Shown here: piece by piece, positions 4,539 through 15,934 of the stretch
How the letters are laid out: each line of letters begins with the position of its first letter
Position numbering within the stretch: position 1 is the first letter of the stretch
Assembly (NCBI RefSeq): GCF_000023225.1
Contig: NC_013173.1
Span: 3,288,501 to 3,352,500 of the forward strand
Length of the DNA: 64,000 nt
Source: Desulfomicrobium baculatum DSM 4028
GTDB taxonomy: Bacteria > Desulfobacterota > Desulfovibrionia > Desulfovibrionales > Desulfomicrobiaceae
Direction of reading: 5' to 3'
Notes under the pieces: model-generated
What the model saw: only the letters and a program-made list of their open reading frames with translations
Told to the model about the DNA's origin: nothing
Databases searched by the model: none
Made by a program: the position numbers and the translations under genes

Positions 4539-5501
4539 ATGAGACACAAGACCAGCCTGGAACAACCCGTCACGCATCAAGCGCCCACGGGTGAAGGCCT
4601 GAGCCCCGCCATCCTCCTTTTTGGAGAAATTCTGGCGGACGTTTTTCCCGATCGCGCGGTTCTTGGCGGCGCCCCTTTCAACGTCGCCCGGCATCTGGCG
4701 GCCTTCGGTCAAAGACCGCTTGTGATCTCCCGCCTGGGAGACGACGCCCTTGGCATTCAGGCCCTTGACAGCATGGAAGACCAGGGCATGGATATTTCCG
4801 GAGTCCAGATCGACCCGGAGCTGCCCACGGGACGGGTAGAGGTTCATATCGAGAATGAGGGGCACCGCTTTGAAATCCTGCCGCGGCAGGCCTACGACTT
4901 CATCGACCCTGCAAGCGCGGCGGTCGCAGCCGAAGCCGCAGCTCCCGCGCTCATCTATTTCGGAACCTTGAGCCAGCGCCACCACACCTCTCGGCAGGCG
5001 CTGGCCCACGTGCTGCAAAACACCACCGCCCCACGCTTTCTGGACATCAACCTGCGCGAACCCTGGTATGACGAGGACACGGTGCGTTTGTCGCTGCAGA
5101 ACGCAGACGTCGTGAAATTGAATGACGAGGAATTGCGGAACCTGGCCGAGATGTTCAAGGCCGGCGCAGGCTTGGCGCAGGCGCAGGGAGCGGAGCTGAA
5201 GCGCATGTTCGACATCAAGCGCCTGATCGTGACTTGCGGGAAAGACGGGGCCTGGCAACTGGACGGAAACGATGACCTCTTTATCGCCTCCCCCGGCAAG
5301 GAACTCTCGCGCATCGTCGACACGGTGGGCGCTGGCGACGCTTTTTCCGCCGCATGCATTCTCGGCATGCGGCTGGGCTGGCCGGAGACCACGGCCCTGA
5401 TGCGAGCACGCGACTTTGCAGCCGCCATCTGCGAAATTCGGGGAGCGGTTCCTGATGACCGGAAATTCTACCAGGCATTTTTCAAGGAGTGGGAACTGTG
5501 A
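4539..5501 (+). CDS. fruK: PfkB-family carbohydrate kinase, probable fructokinase
   Basis: A 320-residue ribokinase-fold sugar kinase. The N-terminal GGAPFNVA (43-50) is the substrate-side glycine pair, and DTVGAGDAFSA (from 261) is PfkB signature 2 with the catalytic Asp267 and anion hole. Located first in a cluster with sucrose-phosphate synthase, sucrose phosphatase and amylosucrase, it most likely phosphorylates the fructose released by amylosucrase. In methanotrophs a gene set of the same make-up encodes sucrose turnover with a fructokinase. Substrate is inferred from context; other PfkB sugars are possible. The ribosome site before the ATG is weak. Its stop overlaps the GTG of the next gene by 4 bases. 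Confidence 0.85.
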   Translation: MRHKTSLEQPVTHQAPTGEGLSPAILLFGEILADVFPDRAVLGGAPFNVARHLAAFGQRPLVISRLGDDALGIQALDSMEDQGMDISGVQIDPELPTGRVEVHIENEGHRFEILPRQAYDFIDPASAAVAAEAAAPALIYFGTLSQRHHTSRQALAHVLQNTTAPRFLDINLREPWYDEDTVRLSLQNADVVKLNDEELRNLAEMFKAGAGLAQAQGAELKRMFDIKRLIVTCGKDGAWQLDGNDDLFIASPGKELSRIVDTVGAGDAFSAACILGMRLGWPETTALMRARDFAAAICEIRGAVPDDRKFYQAFFKEWEL

Positions 5502-7654
5502 AAAAACGCAGAAAGCCCGTCAAGAAACCACTGTTCATAGTACTGATCAGCATTCACGGACTGGTGCGCGGACATGACATGGAATTGGGGCGTGATGCGG
5601 ACACCGGCGGACAGGTCAAATACGTGGTCGAACTGACCCGCGCCCTTGGCGAACGCCCGGATGTGGAAAAGGCCATCCTGCTGACCCGCAGGGTTGTCGA
5701 CGAGGCCATCAGTCCCGATTACGCGCAGGTGATGGAGCCGCTCTCCGACAAGGCCAGCATCGTGCGCATCGAATGCGGCGAGGAAAAATACCTGCGCAAG
5801 GAACTGCTGTGGGACTCGCTGGATAATTTTTCCGACAATGTGTTCACCTTCCTCAAAAGCCAGGAACGCGTCCCCGACCTCCTGCACAGCCATTACGCCG
5901 ACGCGGGCTATGTCGGAGCCCGACTCTCGCATCAGCTCGGCATCCCGCTGGTTCATACCGGCCACTCCCTGGGGCGCAGCAAACGGCTGCGGCTGCTGGC
6001 CAGCGGCATTTCGCGGGGGCAGATCGAGGACACATACAAGATGTCGCGCCGCATCGAAGCGGAGGAAACCACGCTCAGCGCGGCCGAGCGCATCATCACC
6101 AGCACCGGGCAGGAGATCGAGGAGCAATACGGCCTCTACGATTTCTATCAGCCTGAACGCATGTGCGTGATCCCCCCGGGCACGGACCTGGACCACTTCT
6201 ACCCGCCCCGCGAAAGTGAAAAAGGGAGCCCCATCGCCCGCGAGCTGAAGCGCTTCCTGCATCGGCCCACAAAGCCCATGGTGCTTGCGCTCTCGCGGCC
6301 GGACCCGAAAAAGAACATCGTGACCCTCATTGACGCCTACGGGGAATCCCCCCAGTTGCAGGAGGCCGCCAACCTGGTCGTCGTTGCCGGCAACCGCGAC
6401 GACATCCAGGACATGGACGACGGAGCGAGGGGCGTCTTGAATGACATCCTGCTCGCCGTCGACCGCCACGACCTCTACGGCAAGGTCGCTTACCCCAAGC
6501 ACCACAGGCCCGAGGAAGTGGCCACCCTTTTTCGTCTGGCCGCCGCATCACGCGGAGTTTTCGTCAATCCCGCGCTGACCGAGCCCTTCGGTCTGACCCT
6601 GCTCGAAGCCGCAGCCTGCGGGCTGCCCATCGTGGCCACTGAGGACGGCGGGCCCATCGACATCATCAGGAATTGCCGCAACGGCCACCTCGTCGATCCC
6701 CTCGACAAGGAGGCCATGGCAGAAACGATCCTGCGGACCCTGGTCGATAAAAAAGAATGGCGCAGCTTCGCCAAGAATGGGCTGTCCGGCGTGCGCCGCC
6801 ATTATTCGTGGCAGGCGCACGTGGAAAAATATCTGGACGAGATCCGCCCCCTGGTGGAAAAAACCGCGCCGCTGATCCGCATGGCGCCCATCCGGCGCAG
6901 GAGCATCTCCCGCAAGCAGGCGCTCTTCGCGGAGCTGGACCTGAGCCTCATCGGCGAAAATTACTCGCTCACGGCGCTCATGCAGACCCTGCACGCCCAC
7001 CGCAAGACCGTCCTCTTCGGCATTGTCACCGGGCGCCGCCTGGACAGCGCCCTGGCCACGCTGCGCAAGCACAAGATCCCGCAACCCGACGTGCTGATCT
7101 CCGGACAGGGCACGGAAATACATTATGCCCCCAGCCTCACCCAGGACACGATCTGGGAGCGCCACATCAACCACCTCTGGGATCCCCGGGCCGTGCGCGA
7201 GACCCTGCGCGAAATTCCGGGCCTGTCTCTGCAGCCCAAGAAGCACCAGAGCGCGTTTAAAATCAGCTACTACATCGATACTTCGGTGATCAGCGGACAG
7301 CAGGTCCGTCAACTGCTCCAGCACAACGAGCAGGCCGTGAACGTGCTCGTCTCCTTCGGCCAATACCTGGACGTGCTGCCGCTCAGAGCCTCCAAAGGCC
7401 TGGCGCTGCGCTGGTGTTCCGAACAGCTGGACTTTCCATTGGAGAGCACCCTGGTCGCCGGAGTCACCGGAGCCGATGCCGACATGCTGCGCGGCAACAC
7501 CCTGGGCACGGTGGTGGACAACCGACACATCACGGAGCTGTCCGAGCTTGCGAACATCGAGGGGATCCACTTTTCGGAAGCATCCTTCGCGGCGGGGATT
7601 CTCGACGCCATGGCCCATTACGGATTCCCCGCCCAGGAAGAAGGCGCGTCATGA
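5498..7654 (+). CDS. sps: Sucrose-phosphate synthase with C-terminal HAD-like domain
   Basis: Makes sucrose-6-phosphate from a nucleotide-glucose and fructose-6-phosphate. Residues ~10-460 are a GT4 glycosyltransferase: HGLVRGHDMELGRDADTGGQ near the N-terminus is the sucrose-synthase/SPS signature, and EPFGLTLLEAAACGLPIVAT is the donor-site E-x7-E region. From ~470 to the end is a HAD domain like sucrose-phosphatase, but motif I reads ELDLS (near residue 478) instead of DxDxT. The nucleophile Asp is replaced by Glu, so this domain is probably non-catalytic, as in two-domain SPS of cyanobacteria. The GTG at 5498 is preferred over GTG 5489: AAGGAG lies 8 bases upstream and the codon forms a GTGA overlap with the kinase stop. 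Confidence 0.92.
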   Translation: MKKRRKPVKKPLFIVLISIHGLVRGHDMELGRDADTGGQVKYVVELTRALGERPDVEKAILLTRRVVDEAISPDYAQVMEPLSDKASIVRIECGEEKYLRKELLWDSLDNFSDNVFTFLKSQERVPDLLHSHYADAGYVGARLSHQLGIPLVHTGHSLGRSKRLRLLASGISRGQIEDTYKMSRRIEAEETTLSAAERIITSTGQEIEEQYGLYDFYQPERMCVIPPGTDLDHFYPPRESEKGSPIARELKRFLHRPTKPMVLALSRPDPKKNIVTLIDAYGESPQLQEAANLVVVAGNRDDIQDMDDGARGVLNDILLAVDRHDLYGKVAYPKHHRPEEVATLFRLAAASRGVFVNPALTEPFGLTLLEAAACGLPIVATEDGGPIDIIRNCRNGHLVDPLDKEAMAETILRTLVDKKEWRSFAKNGLSGVRRHYSWQAHVEKYLDEIRPLVEKTAPLIRMAPIRRRSISRKQALFAELDLSLIGENYSLTALMQTLHAHRKTVLFGIVTGRRLDSALATLRKHKIPQPDVLISGQGTEIHYAPSLTQDTIWERHINHLWDPRAVRETLREIPGLSLQPKKHQSAFKISYYIDTSVISGQQVRQLLQHNEQAVNVLVSFGQYLDVLPLRASKGLALRWCSEQLDFPLESTLVAGVTGADADMLRGNTLGTVVDNRHITELSELANIEGIHFSEASFAAGILDAMAHYGFPAQEEGAS

Positions 7655-8484
7655 GACGATTCCTGCTCTGCACCGACCTCGACCGGACCCTGATCCCCAA
7701 CGGCCCGGAGCCCCCGTGGCCGGCGGCCACGACGCTGTTTCGGAAACTGGCGGCGCGCGAGGAGATCTGCCTGGCCTACGTGACCGGCCGCCATCGCGCC
7801 CTGATCGAAGACGCCATCGCGGAGTTCGACCTGCCGAGCCCCGACTTTGCCATTGCCGACGTCGGCGCGAGCATCTACCAGGTCGGCGCGGACGACTGGC
7901 AGCCCTGGGATCAGTGGGAGGAACATATCGCGCCGGACTGGCAAGGCATGCGCTGCGCCGATCTCAAGAACCTGCTGCGCGGAATCGCGGAATTGCAACC
8001 GCAGGAGGGGGAAAAGCAGGCCGCCTTCAAGCTGAGCTATTATGTCGCCCTGGACGCGGACTCGCGCACGCTCATCGCCCGGATGCACGAGCGCCTGCAG
8101 CACGAAGGCATCCGCGCCAACCTGATCTGGAGCATCGATGAACTGGCACATATCGGTCTGCTCGATGTTCTGCCTCAAAGCGCCGGGAAACTGCATGCCA
8201 TCCGCTTCATGATGGCAAGGCAAAACTTTTCCCTGCAGAACACGCTCTTCGCGGGGGACAGCGGCAACGACCTGGACGTGCTCCTCAGCGACATTCCGGC
8301 GGTGCTGGTGGCCAATGCCGACGGTGCCATAAAGAAACAGGTGGCAAGAACCAAACCCGAGGCGCTGTATGTCGCCGCAGGAGGATATCTCGGCATGAAC
8401 GGAAACTACAGCGCCGGCATTTTGGAAGGAGTGGCGCATTTCTGGCCCGAGGCCGATGCGTGGCTGCGAGAATTTGAGCAATAA
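7651..8484 (+). CDS. spp: Sucrose-6-phosphate phosphatase (HAD superfamily)
   Basis: A 277-residue HAD phosphatase releasing sucrose from sucrose-6-phosphate. Motif I is intact: DLDRT at 9-13, with Asp9 the nucleophile and Asp11 the acid/base. VTGRH near 50 is motif II-like, and GDSGNDLDVL near 201 is motif IV binding Mg2+. The start forms an ATGA overlap with the synthase stop, so the two sequential enzymes are coupled. The SPS HAD domain has lost its nucleophile and this stand-alone protein has kept it, so this is the likely working phosphatase. Confidence 0.9.
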   Translation: MRRFLLCTDLDRTLIPNGPEPPWPAATTLFRKLAAREEICLAYVTGRHRALIEDAIAEFDLPSPDFAIADVGASIYQVGADDWQPWDQWEEHIAPDWQGMRCADLKNLLRGIAELQPQEGEKQAAFKLSYYVALDADSRTLIARMHERLQHEGIRANLIWSIDELAHIGLLDVLPQSAGKLHAIRFMMARQNFSLQNTLFAGDSGNDLDVLLSDIPAVLVANADGAIKKQVARTKPEALYVAAGGYLGMNGNYSAGILEGVAHFWPEADAWLREFEQ

Positions 8485-8493
8485 GGATCATCC

Positions 8494-10446
8494 ATGTACG
8501 AACAAGCTTCCCATGCCCTGTTGAACGAAATCCTGGCGGGCCTCAGACCCGAAATCGGCAAGTTCCGGCTGCGCCATTTCTATACGCGTCTGGGCGCCAA
8601 CTTTTACGCCATCTATTCCCTTTTCAAACTGCTCTATGGAGACCGGCCCGACTTCAAGCAGCAGATGGTGCGACTGGTCGAAACCCTCGCCCTGCGCTAT
8701 ATGGAGCGTACTCCCACCTTGCGGAAATCGGACTTGGCGCGTGAAGTAAACTACAACTGGTTTTTAAGCCAGAAATGGGTGGCCATGGCGCTGTACTGCG
8801 ATCGCTTCGCGGACAACCTGCAGGGCCTGCGCGAAAAACTCCCCTACTTCCAGGAACTGGGCGTCAACATGCTGCACGTCATGCCCATCCTCGACTGCCC
8901 GCCGGAAAACAACGACGGCGGCTACGCGGTACGGGACTTCCGCAAGATCGACACCAGATACGGCACCCTCAAGGACGTCGAAGAGCTGGCGGCCACGCTC
9001 AAGAGCCGCGAAACCCTCCTCGTCCTCGACGTCGTGGTCAACCACACCTCTGACGAACACGAATGGGCAATGCGGGCGCGGCAGGGCGAAAAGAAATACC
9101 AAGACTACTACTACGTCTTCGACGACCGCAAAACACCCGATGCCTACGAAGAGGGCATGCCCGAAATCTTCCCGGTCACCGCGCCCGGCAACTTCACCTG
9201 GGACGAGACCATGGGCAAGTGGGTCATGACGGTTTTCAACACGTATCAATGGGATTTGAACTATCGCAACCCGGCAGTGCTGATTGAGATGCTCGACATC
9301 ATCCTCTTCTGGGCCAACAAAGGCGCGGACATCCTGCGCCTCGACGCCGTGGCCTTCCTGTGGAAGAAGATCGGCAGCACCTGCCAGAACGAGCGCGAGG
9401 CCCACCTGCTGCTGCGCCTCATGAAGGACTGCTGCCAGGTGACGGCGCCAGGCGTGCTGTTCATCGCCGAGGCCATTGTCGCGCCGGGCGAGATCGCCAA
9501 ATATTTCGGGGAAGACGCGATCTACTCCAAGGAATGCGAGATCGCCTATAACGCCTCGCTCATGGCCCTGCTCTGGGACGCCGTGGCCACCAAGAACGCA
9601 AACCTACTCAACCTGGGCGTGAAGAACCTGCCGAACAAACTGGATCGGGCGACCTGGCTCAACTACGTGCGCTGCCATGACGACATAGGGCTTGGCTTCG
9701 ACGACAGCGACGTGGAACTGGCGGGATACGACCCGACCCTGCACCGAGCCTTTCTGGTCGATTATTTCACGGGCAAATTCCCTTCGTCGCCGGCCCGGGG
9801 CATGCCGTTCGGGACGAACCTGAAAACCGGCGACGCGCGCATCTCCGGCTCCCTGGCTTCCCTGGTCGGCCTGGAGTCGGCGCTGGACTCCGAGGACGAG
9901 GAGGCCATAAACGCCGCCATCAAGACCATCACGCTGCTGCACAGCATCATCCTCTCCTTCGGCGGCCTGCCGCTCATGTACTACGGAGACGCCATAGGTA
10001 CGCTGAACAATCTGGAATTTCTCTCCGATCCGGCAACGCAGAATGACTCACGCTGGGTGCACAGGTCTCGTTTCGACTGGGAAAAAGCCGAAAAGCGCCA
10101 TCAAAGCGGCACCGTCGAACAGCGTATTTTCTCCGCGCTTAAAAAATTGATCGCCCTGCGCAAGGAGCTTCCGGCCTTCGTGGATTTCGACAATCGTCAT
10201 CTGCTGCTCGTCGAAAACCCGAACCTGCTGGTCTTTTACCGCACGGACCCGGAAAACAGCCGCAGCCGGGTGCTCGTCATCTGCAACTTCAACGTCGAAC
10301 CGCAAGCGCTTCCCATCGATACGCTCACGCCGCACGGATTCTTCAACCACGACGGCATGAAGGATCTCTGTACAGGTGAAAACGTGCCGGTGGAAGACGG
10401 ACAGATCTTTATACCGGCTCTGTCCTTCTACTGGCTCAGGGATTGA
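8494..10446 (+). CDS. ams: Amylosucrase (GH13)
   Basis: A 650-residue GH13 enzyme that splits sucrose, transferring glucose to an alpha-1,4-glucan and freeing fructose. An N-terminal helical region (~1-90) precedes the TIM barrel. GH13 regions are visible: DVVVNHTSDEH (region I), DILRLDAVAF with nucleophile Asp near 281, LFIAEAIV with acid/base Glu near 325, and VRCHDDIGL near 395. YFTGKFPSSPARGMPFG and the length fit amylosucrase rather than sucrose phosphorylase (~490 residues). It lies 9 bases after the phosphatase. Its fructose product would feed the kinase at the operon start, so the four genes can make sucrose and also convert it to glycogen-like polymer. Confidence 0.9.
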   Translation: MYEQASHALLNEILAGLRPEIGKFRLRHFYTRLGANFYAIYSLFKLLYGDRPDFKQQMVRLVETLALRYMERTPTLRKSDLAREVNYNWFLSQKWVAMALYCDRFADNLQGLREKLPYFQELGVNMLHVMPILDCPPENNDGGYAVRDFRKIDTRYGTLKDVEELAATLKSRETLLVLDVVVNHTSDEHEWAMRARQGEKKYQDYYYVFDDRKTPDAYEEGMPEIFPVTAPGNFTWDETMGKWVMTVFNTYQWDLNYRNPAVLIEMLDIILFWANKGADILRLDAVAFLWKKIGSTCQNEREAHLLLRLMKDCCQVTAPGVLFIAEAIVAPGEIAKYFGEDAIYSKECEIAYNASLMALLWDAVATKNANLLNLGVKNLPNKLDRATWLNYVRCHDDIGLGFDDSDVELAGYDPTLHRAFLVDYFTGKFPSSPARGMPFGTNLKTGDARISGSLASLVGLESALDSEDEEAINAAIKTITLLHSIILSFGGLPLMYYGDAIGTLNNLEFLSDPATQNDSRWVHRSRFDWEKAEKRHQSGTVEQRIFSALKKLIALRKELPAFVDFDNRHLLLVENPNLLVFYRTDPENSRSRVLVICNFNVEPQALPIDTLTPHGFFNHDGMKDLCTGENVPVEDGQIFIPALSFYWLRD

Positions 10447-10459
10447 TTGGGAACGGAAC

Positions 10460-11026
10460 TCAAACCTTTCCGTTGAAGAGTGATACGCCGGTCACGATGA
10501 TGCCGTAATTGAGGTAGAAGCGTGGAATACGAAAAAGACAGCCTGCAAGCACCGGCCAAAACCCAAGGCCCAAGACGCCCGCGCTCCAGCATGTCACGGA
10601 GAAGGGCATGGGAGTGACCGCCCCGGCCAACACGGCCCACAGACCGTATTTTTTGACTATATCGGCGTTTTCACACTTGAACTCGCCGAACAGTCGGCGG
10701 AAGAGGGGCCGGTAACCAAGCCAGCGACCGACGGCCCAGCCCTGCATCCCCGCCCAAGCGGAAACCAGCCCAAGAAAGCCTACATAGAAAGGCCAGCCCT
10801 GCGCAAAGGCGCTCTTGGCGATGACAATAAGCAGCACGTCGGGCGGAAACGGGGTGACCACGGTGTCCGTGACGAGCAAAATGGCGCACAGCCCGGCAAA
10901 ACCAAGCCTATCGGCGATCCACTGGGCGAAAAGCTCCAGCTCCTGCTCAAACGCGAATCCAAGAACGGAGAGCAGCACCAGGATTAATGCGATGGCGAAA
11001 AAGGTCTTTACAAGAACGGCACGCAT
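10460..11026 (-). CDS. VTT (DedA/YqaA-like) inner-membrane protein
   Basis: About 188 residues with an N-terminal membrane helix and several later ones. The segment TPFPPDVLLIVIAKSAFAQGW, followed by a glycine-rich helix GLVSAWAGMQGWAVGRWLGY and a late hydrophobic pair, fits the VTT/DedA fold; the short size is closer to the YqaA group. These proteins act in the envelope, with lipid scrambling or transport proposed. The start at 11026 is chosen because GAAGAG lies 8 bases upstream; the ATG at 11053 has none. It converges on amylosucrase with 13 bases between. Confidence 0.7.
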   Translation of the reverse strand: MRAVLVKTFFAIALILVLLSVLGFAFEQELELFAQWIADRLGFAGLCAILLVTDTVVTPFPPDVLLIVIAKSAFAQGWPFYVGFLGLVSAWAGMQGWAVGRWLGYRPLFRRLFGEFKCENADIVKKYGLWAVLAGAVTPMPFSVTCWSAGVLGLGFWPVLAGCLFRIPRFYLNYGIIVTGVSLFNGKV

Positions 11027-11341
11027 GTCGTCGACTCTTCGGTGTTGCAGCATTTACGGGCGATGGTTCACGTGACCATAAATCCGCTTTCGGCCAAAGA
11101 CGAACCATTTATTCGTTTGGGCGTCCAAGCCGATCAGACGCCACTTGCATCCCTGAAGGACATGGCCCGGAGAAAGGATTTCAAGGCGAAATAGTCGAGG
11201 TTTTTCGGTCTTGCAACAACATTCGGTGGAGCGAAACCACGTTGTGCCATCCGTTTCGATGTACGCCAAATACGCTCCGCTCCGGCAAAGCCAAAACGTT
11301 TTGGACTCGCGCTCCATGGCTGGAGCGTGTAGTGTCGATCC
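11027..11341. other. Divergent intergenic region
   Basis: About 315 bases between the VTT gene and the rightward gene at 11342. No supported gene. A perfect 6-bp inverted repeat CGCTCC/GGAGCG (11310-11327) sits about 15 bases before the next ATG, where it could hide or mark the translation start. No clear sigma factor site was recognised. Confidence 0.4.
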
Positions 11342-12295
11342 ATGAACACCGGCCCCCCTCTCACCCTCGCTTTCACCGTATTCAGGCCTGAAACCGCGCC
11401 CTTCGCCGCCCGGTCCATGGCCGGCCACGATCTTATCGCATTGGAGGAGCCCCGGACCCCGGGATTCGAAGAGATGCTCGCCGACGAGCTTCCCATCGAC
11501 GAATACCTGATGCTCACGGACTTCGAGTTCCCGGAATACGCCAGCACGCAGTGCCGCACCCTGCAGTCCCTCCACTCCGCCGGGGCGACCATCCTGCAGA
11601 TCCACCCCTGGATGGACGAACTGGTGGGCATCCACGAATTCTTTGCCGCCGGAAACGGACCCGCCGATATCCCCAAAAACGGACAACCGTGGCTCGTGTA
11701 CGAAAGGGAGCGGGAATGGAGCGCGAAGCTTCTGGCCTTCTACACCGCCGCCGGGAAAAAAGATTTCGACGGCATCCTCAGCGCCGTGAACGACTTCGCC
11801 ATGGCCGACGCGGCCAAGATCGGGGACATGGACCGGCACCGCGCCGCAGCCCTGAAAGACATCCTGCCCGCCCACGGCACGGCCTATGTCGAGTGCGGAG
11901 CCATCCACCACGACATGGTCGGGTTGATGCTCAAAGCCCTGGGTCACGGTCAGGTCCGGGTGGTTCACCTCATGGAGGAAGTCTGCCTGGCCCGGTACGG
12001 CAGACGCAGGCTCATTCCGCCCGGAGATCTGCTGACCTTTCGGCATCTCCTCGGCGCACGACGCGACCACGACCACGAAGCACTCCTGGCCGCAAGGGCA
12101 GTGGTCTACAACCGGCTCATGGAAAAAGAGGAAACCTTCGACTCGGCCTCCCCTTACCCGCACATGGACGCCGAAGCCCTGGTCCTGCAGATCGTCGACA
12201 GCCTGGACATCGAGCAGTGCCGGACCCTCTTCGGTCGCATCCGGCACATGGGCGTACATGAGAGCCTTGCCCTCGCCCTGCAAAACAGCCATTAG
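11342..12295 (+). CDS. Uncharacterised protein, coupled to a PEP-synthase-like gene
   Basis: 317 residues, soluble, no signal peptide or membrane helix. I do not recognise the family firmly. Visible blocks are LIALEEPRTPGFEEML near 30, YLMLTDFEFPEYAS near 57, LQIHPWMDELVGIHEFFA near 83, and TAYVECGAIHHDMVGLMLKA near 180. The last recalls the late GAGH-x-GL segment of TraB/GumN-type proteins, but this is a weak resemblance. Acidic and histidine residues are conserved-looking in these blocks, so a metal-dependent hydrolase is conceivable. It ends 6 bases before the PPDK-like gene, so the two are very likely one operon and one function. Confidence 0.6.
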   Translation: MNTGPPLTLAFTVFRPETAPFAARSMAGHDLIALEEPRTPGFEEMLADELPIDEYLMLTDFEFPEYASTQCRTLQSLHSAGATILQIHPWMDELVGIHEFFAAGNGPADIPKNGQPWLVYEREREWSAKLLAFYTAAGKKDFDGILSAVNDFAMADAAKIGDMDRHRAAALKDILPAHGTAYVECGAIHHDMVGLMLKALGHGQVRVVHLMEEVCLARYGRRRLIPPGDLLTFRHLLGARRDHDHEALLAARAVVYNRLMEKEETFDSASPYPHMDAEALVLQIVDSLDIEQCRTLFGRIRHMGVHESLALALQNSH

Positions 12296-12301
12296 CTGGG
12301 T

Positions 12302-14380
12302 ATGAATATCCTGCCCATTCCTGTCACCGGCCGAGACTCCCGAAACCTGATGCCCTTGAGCGGAGCCAAGGCCGTCAACCTCCGGCATCTCTCCCTGCAT
12401 GGTTTCGCTGTACCGACTACCCTCTTTGTGCCCCCAGCAGCTTACGCCGAATTCGTGCGGCACACGGGCCTCTCGCAACACATCGAAGCGGTTACCGCAA
12501 GCCTGCGCGAAGCCATGCGCTGGGAGGAAATCTGGGATGTCTCCCTGAAGCTGCGCAACGCCTTTCTCCGTCAGCCCCTGCCCGAACCCATGGCCAAAGC
12601 CATCCTCGCCACCGTCGAAAACGCCTTGCCCGGAGCCTCCCTGGCCGTTCGCTCCTGTTCTCCGGACGAGGATTCGGGCTTTTCCCATGCAGGGATGCAT
12701 GACTCGGTCCTGGAAGTGCGAGGCCCTGAAGAGCTGTCGTGCGCCATCCGTACCGTCTGGGCCTCCCTGTGGACGGACAGGGCCATCCTGTATCGTCGCG
12801 AAATGGGCTTGAAGGCAGGCACGTCCGACATGGCCGTCCTCATCCAGCCCATGATCTACGGACGGGTCTCGGGCGTGCTCTTCACGGCCAGCCCTGTCGA
12901 CGAGTTCACGTCCATCATCGAGTCTGCGCCGGGCCTGGCCAGAGAGGTGGTCGAAGACCGGGTCGGGACAGAACGCATCGTCATGTCCCGGTCGTCAGGG
13001 GCAGAGCTATCGCGCACACCTTTCCTGGAGCCGGTTCTTGGAGGAGAGGAAGCCAGGAAACTGCTGGAACTGGGCCTGCAGATCGAACGGCTGTTCGGCG
13101 CCCCCCAGGACATCGAGTGGACCCTCGCCGACACGGGCCCCGTCATCCTGCAGGCACGCCCCGTGACCACCCTGGCGCGGTCCTCGAACGCTGCCGGATG
13201 GTCCGACAGGGACAAGCGGCCTTGGTACCTGAGCCTGACGCGCAGCCACGGCAACCTGCTGGAACTTCGCAACAGAATCGAAGGACAGATCCTGCCCGGC
13301 ATGCTTGAGGAAAGCGAACGCATGAAAGACGTGAACCTTTCGGCCATGAGTCCGGCGGAGCTTGAGGCCGAGGTCCTTCGCCGCCGGGAGGTTCTGGAGC
13401 GTTGGCGCGACATCTACTGGCGGGAGCTCATCCCCTTCGCCCATGCCGTGCGGCAGTTCGGCATGCTCTACAACGATGCCGTAGCTCCCGAAGACCCCTT
13501 CGAGTTCACGGCCCTGCTGACCGGACAGCAACTCCTTGCGGTCAGGCGCAACGACCTGTTGACGGAACTGGCGGCCATGGTCCGCGCCGATGCGGCCCTG
13601 GCCGCCAGGCTCGGGGACGCAGACATCCCAGCAGATGGAAAATTCGCCGAGAAACTCGAGGAATTCAAACAAGATTTCGGAGACCTGTCCTGCGGTACGT
13701 CCTGGTGCGAGGAAGGTCCCCAAGGCATCGTACGCCTGACTCTGGAACTGGCCCGGCACGAACCCAGACGGCGCTCGGCGAGGGGGGCCGCCGATCTCGA
13801 AGAGCGCTTCCTGGCCGCCCTGTCGCGGGAAAAGCGCGACTTCGGCGCGGCGGTCCTCGACCTGGCCCGAACCAGCTACCGGCTACGCGACGACGACAAC
13901 CTCTATCTCGGAAAAATCCAGGCCCGCCACGACGAGGCCCTGGCCCATGCCCTGGATATGGGACTGACGATGGACCATGCCGTTCGGGAAGGCCGGAGCA
14001 GCCTGCCCAAAGGCAACGCCTGGACCGAAAACGTCGGATCATCGGCGCCGGGAACCCTATTCAAAGGCTGGGCCGCCTCCGCTGGGGTGGCCAGAGGAAA
14101 AGCCCGGGTCGTGACCGAGCCGGAAGACCTCTTCTCGTTCAGGGCCGGAGAAATTCTCGTCTGCGACGCTCTGGACCCGAACATGACCTTCGTGGCGCCC
14201 CTGGCCGCCGGTATCGTCGAACGCCGCGGAGGCATGCTCGTACACGGTGCCATCATCGCCCGGGAATACGGTATCCCCTGCGTCACCGGGGTGGATGAAG
14301 CTACGGTGCGCATCAAGAATGGCCAGACGTTGCTGGTGGACGGATTCCGGGGCGAGATCACGCTGGAACAACAGGACTGA
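12302..14380 (+). CDS. PEP-synthase/pyruvate phosphate dikinase-like phosphotransferase
   Basis: 692 residues with two domains of the PEP-utilising enzyme family. Residues ~15-300 are the PPDK-type ATP-binding domain (LSGAKAVNLRHL, SLAVRSCSPDEDSGFSHAGMHDS, VLIQPMIYGRVSGVLFTASP, DIEWTLADTGPVILQARPV). A helical linker of ~270 residues follows. The C-terminal phosphohistidine domain has GGMLVHGAIIAREYGIPCVTG, with swivelling His648 retained where the usual motif reads GG.TSHAAI. The C-terminal PEP/pyruvate TIM barrel of true PEP synthase is absent. This layout (ATP domain, insert, His domain) is that of rifampicin phosphotransferase and related small-molecule or protein phosphotransferases. The substrate is unknown, and the linker probably binds it. 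Confidence 0.85.
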   Translation: MNILPIPVTGRDSRNLMPLSGAKAVNLRHLSLHGFAVPTTLFVPPAAYAEFVRHTGLSQHIEAVTASLREAMRWEEIWDVSLKLRNAFLRQPLPEPMAKAILATVENALPGASLAVRSCSPDEDSGFSHAGMHDSVLEVRGPEELSCAIRTVWASLWTDRAILYRREMGLKAGTSDMAVLIQPMIYGRVSGVLFTASPVDEFTSIIESAPGLAREVVEDRVGTERIVMSRSSGAELSRTPFLEPVLGGEEARKLLELGLQIERLFGAPQDIEWTLADTGPVILQARPVTTLARSSNAAGWSDRDKRPWYLSLTRSHGNLLELRNRIEGQILPGMLEESERMKDVNLSAMSPAELEAEVLRRREVLERWRDIYWRELIPFAHAVRQFGMLYNDAVAPEDPFEFTALLTGQQLLAVRRNDLLTELAAMVRADAALAARLGDADIPADGKFAEKLEEFKQDFGDLSCGTSWCEEGPQGIVRLTLELARHEPRRRSARGAADLEERFLAALSREKRDFGAAVLDLARTSYRLRDDDNLYLGKIQARHDEALAHALDMGLTMDHAVREGRSSLPKGNAWTENVGSSAPGTLFKGWAASAGVARGKARVVTEPEDLFSFRAGEILVCDALDPNMTFVAPLAAGIVERRGGMLVHGAIIAREYGIPCVTGVDEATVRIKNGQTLLVDGFRGEITLEQQD

Positions 14381-14384
14381 ACGG

Positions 14385-15275
14385 TCAGGAAACGAGCAAG
14401 AGGACGGTCAGACCGACCATGGGCGCAAGGCAAAAAGCCACCTGGGCCGTCACGAAATGGAGCATGCCGCGCTCTCCCGGCTGCGCCCCGGACAGGCGCA
14501 GGCAGACCAGCCAAAGCCCGGTGCACGCCAGAGCCAACATGAACCGCAAAAAGAGGGCCGTGCCTGGAAGCGGCGCGAGCACGAGCCAGACCAGGGTCAG
14601 GGCGTTCAGCCGCAGAATGGCTCGCTGACTGGCGGCAACGCCGAAGCGTACGGCATGGGTGCGTTTGCCATCGGCCCGGTCGGACGGTTCATCGGGCAGG
14701 GCCGTGGCCATGGCGCAGGACAGGGACAGGCCGAGCATGAGCGGCATGAGCGTCCAGGGCAACCCGGCGAGGGTCCCGGCGTGTGCGCTGAAGCCGATCA
14801 TGGGCAGCACGAGCCCCACCCCGACCATCTGCAAGTACTCGCCGCCGCCTCGGTAGGACAAGCGCAGAGGCGGATAGCTGTAAGCCCACAAAAGCCCGAG
14901 CCCGATAAGAATAAGCGGCAGTGGCAGCCAATTGTGATGGCGAATCCCCAGGAAAACTCCGGCCAGAGCCGAGAGCGCCCCGCACAGAATAGCCGCCCGG
15001 CCCAGCTGGCCCCGTGTCAGAATGCCATCCACGAGAACCCTGGAGCCTCCCGAAAACAGGGTAAAGGTGACATTTCTGCGATCCGTGGCAATGTCCGCCA
15101 CGTCATTGGCAAAGACGATATAAAGTTGGCTGGCCAGACCATAGAGATGGCAGAGAAGGACGATCTCCCAGGAAAAATCGTCTCCCATGGCCAATGCCTG
15201 CCCCAGGAGCAGGGGCCAGAAAATGTACATCTGCGACGGCAGGCGGGCCGCCTGCACCCACGCCCGCCAAGGCAT
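14385..15275 (-). CDS. UbiA-family prenyltransferase
   Basis: About 296 residues, nearly all hydrophobic helices. Both Asp-rich motifs of UbiA enzymes are present: NDVADIATDR in loop 2 and DEPSDRADGKR in loop 6, which bind the prenyl diphosphate through Mg2+. The start at 15275 (MPWRAWVQAARLP) matches the usual N-terminus; upstream in-frame sequence is Arg/Gly-rich and runs into the HIT gene. The acceptor is not clear from sequence. Because menaquinone is made by the futalosine route here (mqnE at 61707), a MenA/MqnP-like role is possible. It converges on the PEP-synthase-like gene with 4 bases between stops. Confidence 0.85.
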   Translation of the reverse strand: MPWRAWVQAARLPSQMYIFWPLLLGQALAMGDDFSWEIVLLCHLYGLASQLYIVFANDVADIATDRRNVTFTLFSGGSRVLVDGILTRGQLGRAAILCGALSALAGVFLGIRHHNWLPLPLILIGLGLLWAYSYPPLRLSYRGGGEYLQMVGVGLVLPMIGFSAHAGTLAGLPWTLMPLMLGLSLSCAMATALPDEPSDRADGKRTHAVRFGVAASQRAILRLNALTLVWLVLAPLPGTALFLRFMLALACTGLWLVCLRLSGAQPGERGMLHFVTAQVAFCLAPMVGLTVLLLVS

Positions 15276-15337
15276 CCCGCAGCGGCCGGGGGGCTCGCGC
15301 TTCGCATTGGGCGAAGGCCCAGAGTTGCCGGACGCGA

Positions 15338-15763
15338 TCACTCGCTTCCCGCCATGCCCAACAGGCTCGCCAGAACCTTTGCCTTCAGTTCCAGCACCTC
15401 GCCGTCCCCGTACACGCATCCCGGCTCGACTCGCCCCCAGACCACTCCCGGCCAATAAGGGTCCGTCTTCCAGCGGCCGATGACGTGAAAATGAAACTGC
15501 GGCACCATGTTGCCGATGGCGGCGATGTTGACCTTGTCGCAGCCGTCGTCGTGCTTGAGCATGGCACCCAGCATCGACGATGCGGTCAGAAGCTGGTCGC
15601 GCAGAGGTGCGGGCAATTCATGCCATTCGGTAGCGTCAGTTTCAGGGACGAGAATGAACCAGCGTACATGGGCGTCCCTGTGCAGCAGGAGCCGAAGCTC
15701 CCGCCATGTTCCGAGTACGTGGCAGTCCGCAGCAAGAGTGGGGTGCACTATGAATGATTCCAT
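15338..15763 (-). CDS. HIT-family protein
   Basis: 141 residues from the ATG at 15763. The HIT motif reads QFHFHVIGR: the first His of H-x-H-x-H is Gln, while the middle (catalytic) and last His remain. The surrounding NMVPQFHFH and the DPYWPGVVWG tail are typical of a proteobacterial HIT subgroup with this Gln. Such proteins hydrolyse nucleotide conjugates; the substrate is not known. There is no clear ribosome site, so the start could be the in-frame ATG at 15802. It probably shares a transcript with the UbiA gene downstream. Confidence 0.8.
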   Translation of the reverse strand: MESFIVHPTLAADCHVLGTWRELRLLLHRDAHVRWFILVPETDATEWHELPAPLRDQLLTASSMLGAMLKHDDGCDKVNIAAIGNMVPQFHFHVIGRWKTDPYWPGVVWGRVEPGCVYGDGEVLELKAKVLASLLGMAGSE

Positions 15764-15934
15764 ACCCGACGCTACGGCAGCGATGCCCCCTCCCGCAAGC
15801 ACGGACTTTCCCGGCCAGCCAGCTTGTCCGACAAGAAGCCCAAAAAGAAGAACGCTTTACAGTTCTCCGCAACAGGTGATAATCGCACTCCGTGGCATAC
15901 AAGTCCCTACATACACTCCTGGAGGTATCGAAGC

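What the first reader, a model, noticed from the sequence alone, without database searches (positions are those of the whole stretch)
11342..14380. Unrecognised protein paired with a short PEP-synthase-like phosphotransferase
The second gene has ATP-grasp-like and phosphohistidine domains but no PEP/pyruvate barrel and a large non-standard linker, the layout of rifampicin phosphotransferase. Its partner (6 bases upstream) has no family I can name. Together they may phosphorylate and process an unknown small molecule or protein. This is the best candidate for an undescribed two-protein system in the window.
Basis: inference. Interest (0 to 1): 0.7.

Follow-up and report, generated by a model that had tools for sequence, protein, structure and literature searches.

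The report
Rifampin-phosphotransferase-like kinase plus TIKI-fold partner
Two adjacent genes of a sulfate-reducing bacterium encode a small-molecule kinase built like rifampin phosphotransferase and an unnamed protein with the fold of ChaN and erythromycin esterases; relatives of the kinase usually sit beside a different flavin-type protein and often near light-damage repair genes, so the pair is a real but local variant of a wider, apparently undescribed module.

Summary
Both ORFs are real at the stated coordinates. The window lies in a Desulfomicrobium-like genome. P2 (12302-14380) has the layout and catalytic residues of rifampin phosphotransferase (RPH), with a shorter central domain. P1 (11342-12295) matches no Pfam or NCBIfam model, but its model resembles EreC, HopBA1, BcR135 and ChaN: an unnamed family of the TIKI/EreA-ChaN superfamily, found in 48 of 395 Desulfobacterota genomes.

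P1-P2 adjacency is narrow (four Desulfomicrobiaceae genomes). Elsewhere P1 is usually alone, and P2 relatives sit directly behind a pyridoxamine-phosphate-oxidase-family (PPOX) gene in 30 of 36 loci, and in Ilyobacter. P1 and P2 are nevertheless linked in two further families, one as a P1-photolyase operon divergent from PPOX-P2. P2 co-occurs strongly with DPRP photolyase (13 genomes shared, 1.5 expected). One P2 clade lost PPOX; the Desulfomicrobiaceae, which have P1 instead, lie inside it. In that family the putative catalytic His14 of P1 is Phe, and position 88 has become His.

Best reading: P2 is an ATP-dependent dikinase for an unknown small molecule; P1 is an auxiliary TIKI-fold protein with an altered active site. 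A light or oxidative stress role is plausible, not shown. New families of known kinds.

The parts
11342..12295 (+). P1: 317-aa protein, unnamed family with TIKI/EreA-ChaN fold
   Evidence: ORF; no Pfam/NCBIfam hit; AF2 pLDDT 91.4; EreC Z 10.2, HopBA1 9.8, BcR135 9.8, ChaN 9.4; hhalign against PF04187 members E 1e-4 over 168 columns
11381..11383 (+). P1 Phe14, where 40 of 54 family members have His (motif GFSxHRxE)
11444..11446 (+). P1 Glu35 (LEEP), invariant in 54 sequences
11603..11605 (+). P1 His88, Glu or Asp in all other members; changed together with H14F in Desulfomicrobiaceae
11840..11842 (+). P1 Arg167, invariant
11906..11908 (+). P1 His189 (VEAGYIH motif), invariant
12302..14380 (+). 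P2: 692-aa RPH-like dikinase
12302..13180 (+). P2 ATP-grasp domain (aa 1-293; K23, R117, E272, Q284, R286)
   Evidence: PF01326; alignment to RPH; conservation
13181..14041 (+). P2 central, mostly helical, putative substrate-binding domain (aa 294-580)
   Evidence: AF2 model; 622 P2 residues align to RPH 5hv1 over both whole chains; diagnostic domain used to find relatives
14054..14371 (+). P2 phosphohistidine swivel domain (aa 585-690)
   Evidence: PF00391; Z about 12-20 to isolated swivel domains, rmsd about 2-3
14243..14245 (+). P2 His648, equivalent of the catalytic His825 of RPH
   Evidence: GGMLVHGAIIAREYG aligned to RPH GGLMTHGAVIAREYG; invariant in 35 sequences

Best explanation
P2 is a single-chain RPH-type dikinase. 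The ATP-grasp domain transfers a phosphoryl group from ATP to His648 on the C-terminal swivel domain; the swivel domain carries it to a small-molecule hydroxyl held by the central helical domain, yielding AMP and Pi (inferred from homology and invariant residues). P1 is a protein of the TIKI/EreA-ChaN superfamily: hydrolase-like or ligand-binding in the wider family, with a rewired active site in Desulfomicrobiaceae (F14/H88), where it is probably cotranscribed with P2 and acts on or binds the same ligand (inferred). The P2 family's ordinary context (PPOX partner, photolyase, cyclopropane-fatty-acid genes) points to handling a redox- or light-related small molecule rather than to pyruvate metabolism (inferred).
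For: P2: Pfam domains, catalytic residues invariant or nearly so across 35 relatives, RPH structures first in Foldseek (E 1.8e-30) and aligned over 622 of 692 residues. P1: fold matches, profile match to ChaN members, conserved His/Glu/Arg pattern like the 2His/2Glu plus Arg of TIKI enzymes (PMC6254334). Link: 6-nt gap here and in G001, 4-nt overlap in G020, G191 locus, P1 remnants near PPOX-P2 in G239 and G381, co-occurrence p 4e-4 by genome and 2e-3 by family. Context: PPOX upstream in 30 of 36 loci and Ilyobacter; P2-DPRP co-occurrence p 6e-12 by genome, 1e-6 by family.
Against: Four Desulfomicrobium-type genomes with P1 give no P2 hit, though three of them are incomplete or fragmented, and most P1 genomes in the phylum sample lack P2. 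The substrate is unknown. The window P1 lacks the first His of the motif. The window genome has no DPRP photolyase and no P2-linked PPOX, so the light context may not apply to it. Co-occurrence statistics are not corrected for phylogeny, and the DPRP test was chosen after seeing the neighbourhoods.
Confidence: 0.55

Rival explanations
1. P1 and P2 are unrelated genes that became neighbours in one family; the adjacency has no functional meaning.
For: P1 is solitary with variable neighbours in nearly all other lineages. P2 is missing next to P1 in several Desulfomicrobium genomes. P2's usual partner is PPOX.
Against: Tight or overlapping operon spacing in two genera; same-locus linkage in two further families; co-occurrence above chance.
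Confidence: 0.3
2. P2 is a rifamycin-type resistance kinase and P1 an antibiotic-modifying esterase relative: a resistance operon.
For: P2 is closest to RPH among solved structures; P1 is closest in fold to the erythromycin esterase EreC.
Against: P2 scores 222 bits against the RPH model's 999-bit cut-off; its central domain is about 290 aa against over 400 in RPH; no plasmid or phage match for P1; only one plasmid record matches the P2 central domain; the window P1 lost a conserved His.
Confidence: 0.07
3. P2 is a degenerate PEP synthase acting as a regulator rather than a kinase.
For: A PEP-synthase-like protein has been reported as a regulator in Haloferax (PMC10948481, title and abstract only).
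Against: ATP-grasp and phosphohistidine catalytic residues are invariant or nearly so over 35 diverse relatives.
Confidence: 0.08

Closest known systems
Rifampin phosphotransferase (RPH, 5hv1/5fbs; PMC4844700)
   Same: Order ATP-grasp, central domain, C-terminal phosphohistidine domain; Lys22, Arg117, Glu297, Gln309, Arg311 and His825 correspond to K23, R117, E272, Q284, R286 and H648; Thr136 corresponds to S135.
   Different: Central domain about a third shorter; far below the NCBIfam RPH cut-off; different genomic context; substrate unknown.
Two-component phenol dikinases HpeHI, CreHI, PpsAB (PMC12167813)
   Same: Same three modules and proposed mechanism; show that RPH-like kinases phosphorylate small phenolic compounds.
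   Different: Those split ATP-grasp and swivel/substrate modules into two proteins; P2 is one chain and P1 is neither module.
TIKI superfamily: EreC, BcR135, ChaN, HopBA1, RRSP (PMC6254334)
   Same: Fold of P1; conserved His after strand 1, Glu after strand 2, Arg in the long helix, His after the following strand.
   Different: No match to any Pfam family of that superfamily; His14 lost in the window protein; the 168-column profile match to ChaN members is weak (E 1e-4, probability 57%).
PPOX-PEP/pyruvate-binding gene pair (e.g. Ilyobacter polytropus ILYOP_RS11605/11600)
   Same: The kinase is a P2 homologue (38% identity in the central domain).
   Different: Upstream partner is a PNPOx-family protein instead of P1.

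Membership tests
Rifampin phosphotransferase | ATP-grasp, central domain and C-terminal His domain in that order, no TIM barrel | tested here: met
Rifampin phosphotransferase | ATP-grasp Lys/Arg/Glu/Gln/Arg and swivel His | tested here: met
Rifampin phosphotransferase | curated NCBIfam score (999 bits) | tested here: not met
   221.7 bits
Rifampin phosphotransferase | rifampin-binding central domain with Arg666/Glu667 pair | tested here: inconclusive
   about 245 central residues align structurally by subtraction, but the forced profile alignment of this part is poor; invariant R529-D530 is only a candidate equivalent
Rifampin phosphotransferase | phosphorylates rifampin | not testable with these tools
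   needs enzyme assay
PEP synthase / PPDK | C-terminal PEP/pyruvate TIM barrel | tested here: not met
   His domain is C-terminal; no barrel domain found
TIKI / EreA-ChaN superfamily (P1) | parallel beta core with surrounding helices | tested here: met
   top six VIA-align rows are all superfamily members, Z 9.3-10.2; hhalign to ChaN members
TIKI / EreA-ChaN superfamily (P1) | two catalytic His and two Glu | tested here: inconclusive
   H14, E35, H189 present in 40, 54 and 54 of 54 sequences, but the window protein has F14; the second Glu (E17 or E36) is only proposed
Pfam ChaN (PF04187) | match to the model | tested here: not met
   no hit for any of 16 members scanned
Pfam Erythro_esteras (PF05139) | match to the model | tested here: not met
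   no hit for any of 16 members scanned
Known anti-phage defence systems | match to a PADLOC model | tested here: not met

The most novel reading that the evidence does not exclude
PPOX-family protein, RPH-like dikinase, P1-type TIKI protein and DPRP photolyase form an undescribed small-molecule phosphorylation and processing module of the light or photo-oxidative damage response in anaerobes; in Desulfomicrobiaceae the PPOX partner has been lost and P1, with a relocated active-site histidine, stands in its place.
Probability: 0.25. Interest if true: 0.65.

Novelty: new variant of a known kind. Interest (0 to 1): 0.42.

Why it matters
The characterised RPH-like kinases are few and spread over antibiotic inactivation, phenol catabolism and prodigiosin synthesis. 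A subfamily with a near-constant PPOX partner, for which one paper search found no description, is a tractable route to a new substrate. P1 adds an unnamed family to the TIKI/EreA-ChaN superfamily, present in 12% of sampled Desulfobacterota genomes, and its H14F/E88H switch is directly testable.

Tried and rejected
PDB sequence searches with P1 and with its 54-row profile gave only non-significant hits; Foldseek alone gave no significant P1 hit, the superfamily emerged with VIA-align. Pfam scan of P1 family members gave only chance-level GYD and BACK hits. Plasmid and phage searches for P1 were empty. No sigma-70-like promoter was found around the pair. Mapping RPH Arg666/Glu667 onto P2 by profile alignment failed. 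Papers joining PPOX, PEP-utilizing enzymes and photolyase: none found. The single genome-contig scan used narrow peptide patterns, so absence of P1 outside Desulfobacterota is not shown. The P2 fragment near P1 in G191 C16 (2376-2561) is a separate remnant, not the intact PPOX-P2 that follows on C49.

Full report
Observation. The two ORFs exist exactly as described: P1 11342-12295 and P2 12302-14380, same strand, 6 nt apart. They are conserved in the relative G001 with differences concentrated at third codon positions. The genome is Desulfomicrobium-like, judged from named relatives of P1.

P2. Pfam finds PPDK_N (aa 19-233) and the PEP-utilizers mobile domain (aa 614-684), nothing between or after. 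The best-scoring solved structures by sequence are RPH and PEP synthase. The AF2 model (35 relatives, pLDDT 84.5) has RPH entries as its first seven Foldseek hits (E down to 1.8e-30), and VIA-align aligns 622 of 692 residues to 5hv1 across both full chains (the overall rmsd of about 24 probably reflects different domain positions; ATP-grasp alone 3.9 A over 272). K23, R117, E272, Q284, R286 and H648 correspond to RPH Lys22, Arg117, Glu297, Gln309, Arg311 and His825 (PMC4844700; Gln309 and Arg311 by alignment position) and are invariant or nearly so. P2 is not RPH itself: 222 bits against a 999-bit cut-off.

P1. No Pfam, NCBIfam or PADLOC family matches. The AF2 model is confident (pLDDT 91.4). 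Foldseek alone finds nothing significant, but VIA-align ranks EreC, HopBA1, BcR135 and ChaN first, Z 9.3-10.2. These Z values are moderate, but the top six rows all belong to one superfamily, and the Pasteurella toxin domain of the same superfamily follows. An independent profile comparison with PF04187 members aligns 168 columns with the RD..RA...AG.xH region in register (E 1e-4, probability 57%). The family signature is GFSxHRxE, LEEP, QVEPY, RLRDxLRA, YVEAGYIH, like the His/Glu/Arg/His pattern of TIKI enzymes (PMC6254334).

Altered site. His14 is present in 40 of 54 sequences. On the tree it was lost once: the 14 exceptions form one clade (support 0.97), Tyr in the Desulfonatronospira group and G026, Phe in Desulfomicrobiaceae, and in all eight of the latter position 88, Glu or Asp elsewhere, is His. 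Whether 14 and 88 face each other was not checked in coordinates.

Distribution of P1. 48 of 395 Desulfobacterota genomes have a match, nearly always one, with different neighbours in different families.

Partner of P2. Using the P2 central domain as query, 31 of 395 genomes match. Of 36 loci examined, 30 have a PNPOx-family (PF01243) gene directly upstream on the same strand, often with overlapping stop and start. Ilyobacter polytropus (Fusobacteriota) has the same pair. The seven full-length P2 proteins without a PPOX neighbour, all Desulfovibrionales and including the window, form one clade (support 0.99); three of them, all Desulfomicrobiaceae, have P1 adjacent.

P1-P2 linkage. Adjacent in G000, G001, G015 and G020. 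In G191 (another family) contig C16 carries P1 behind a DPRP photolyase and, divergently, the start of PPOX; contig C49 carries the rest of PPOX and P2; the contig ends share an exact 127-base overlap, so the loci are most likely joined. G239 and G381 keep a 46-residue P1 remnant about 3.5 kb from PPOX-P2. Genomes with both: 11 against 3.8 expected, p 4e-4; by family 8 against 3.0, p 2e-3 (no correction for phylogeny; one of the 11 is the G239 remnant).

Context. 13 of 37 P2 loci contain a photolyase, COG2907-type amine oxidoreductase, DUF1365 or cyclopropane synthase gene, against 4 of 56 P1 loci (p 9e-4). DPRP photolyase and P2 share 13 genomes against 1.5 expected (p 6e-12; families p 1e-6), most of them without physical linkage. 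A cyclopropane synthase gene and photolyase-family genes are induced by blue light in Vibrio cholerae (PMC5241685). The DPRP test was picked after looking at the neighbourhoods. The window genome itself has no DPRP gene.

Conclusion. Shown: fold and domain identities, conserved residues, gene linkages. Inferred: phosphotransfer by His648 to a small molecule, a shared ligand for P1 and P2, a light or oxidative stress role. The pair looks like a local rearrangement of a wider module in which PPOX, not P1, is the usual partner of the kinase.

Noticed in passing
4539-10446: PfkB sugar kinase, sucrose-phosphate synthase/phosphatase fusion, separate sucrose-phosphatase and GH13 alpha-amylase-family gene in a row: looks like a sucrose synthesis and turnover cluster.
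   Followed up: partly
10460-11053 (-): 197-aa membrane-type protein with no Pfam match, directly upstream of and divergent from P1.
   Followed up: no
14385-15802 (-): UbiA prenyltransferase and HIT-domain genes convergent with P2, followed by a peptide ABC transporter.
   Followed up: no
L227 (G000:C1:3779128-3779826): The same genome has a canonical ChaN-family (PF04187) domain inside a 784-codon frame, so P1 is not its only superfamily member.
   Followed up: no
L107 2376-2561: Short P2-like remnant with stops near P1 in G191, in addition to the intact PPOX-P2.
   Followed up: partly
L096, L097, L099, L110, L115, L123-L125: In other families P1 overlaps or abuts MutY-like, D-Tyr-tRNA deacylase-like or FabH-like genes (named by eye, not by profile).
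   Followed up: no
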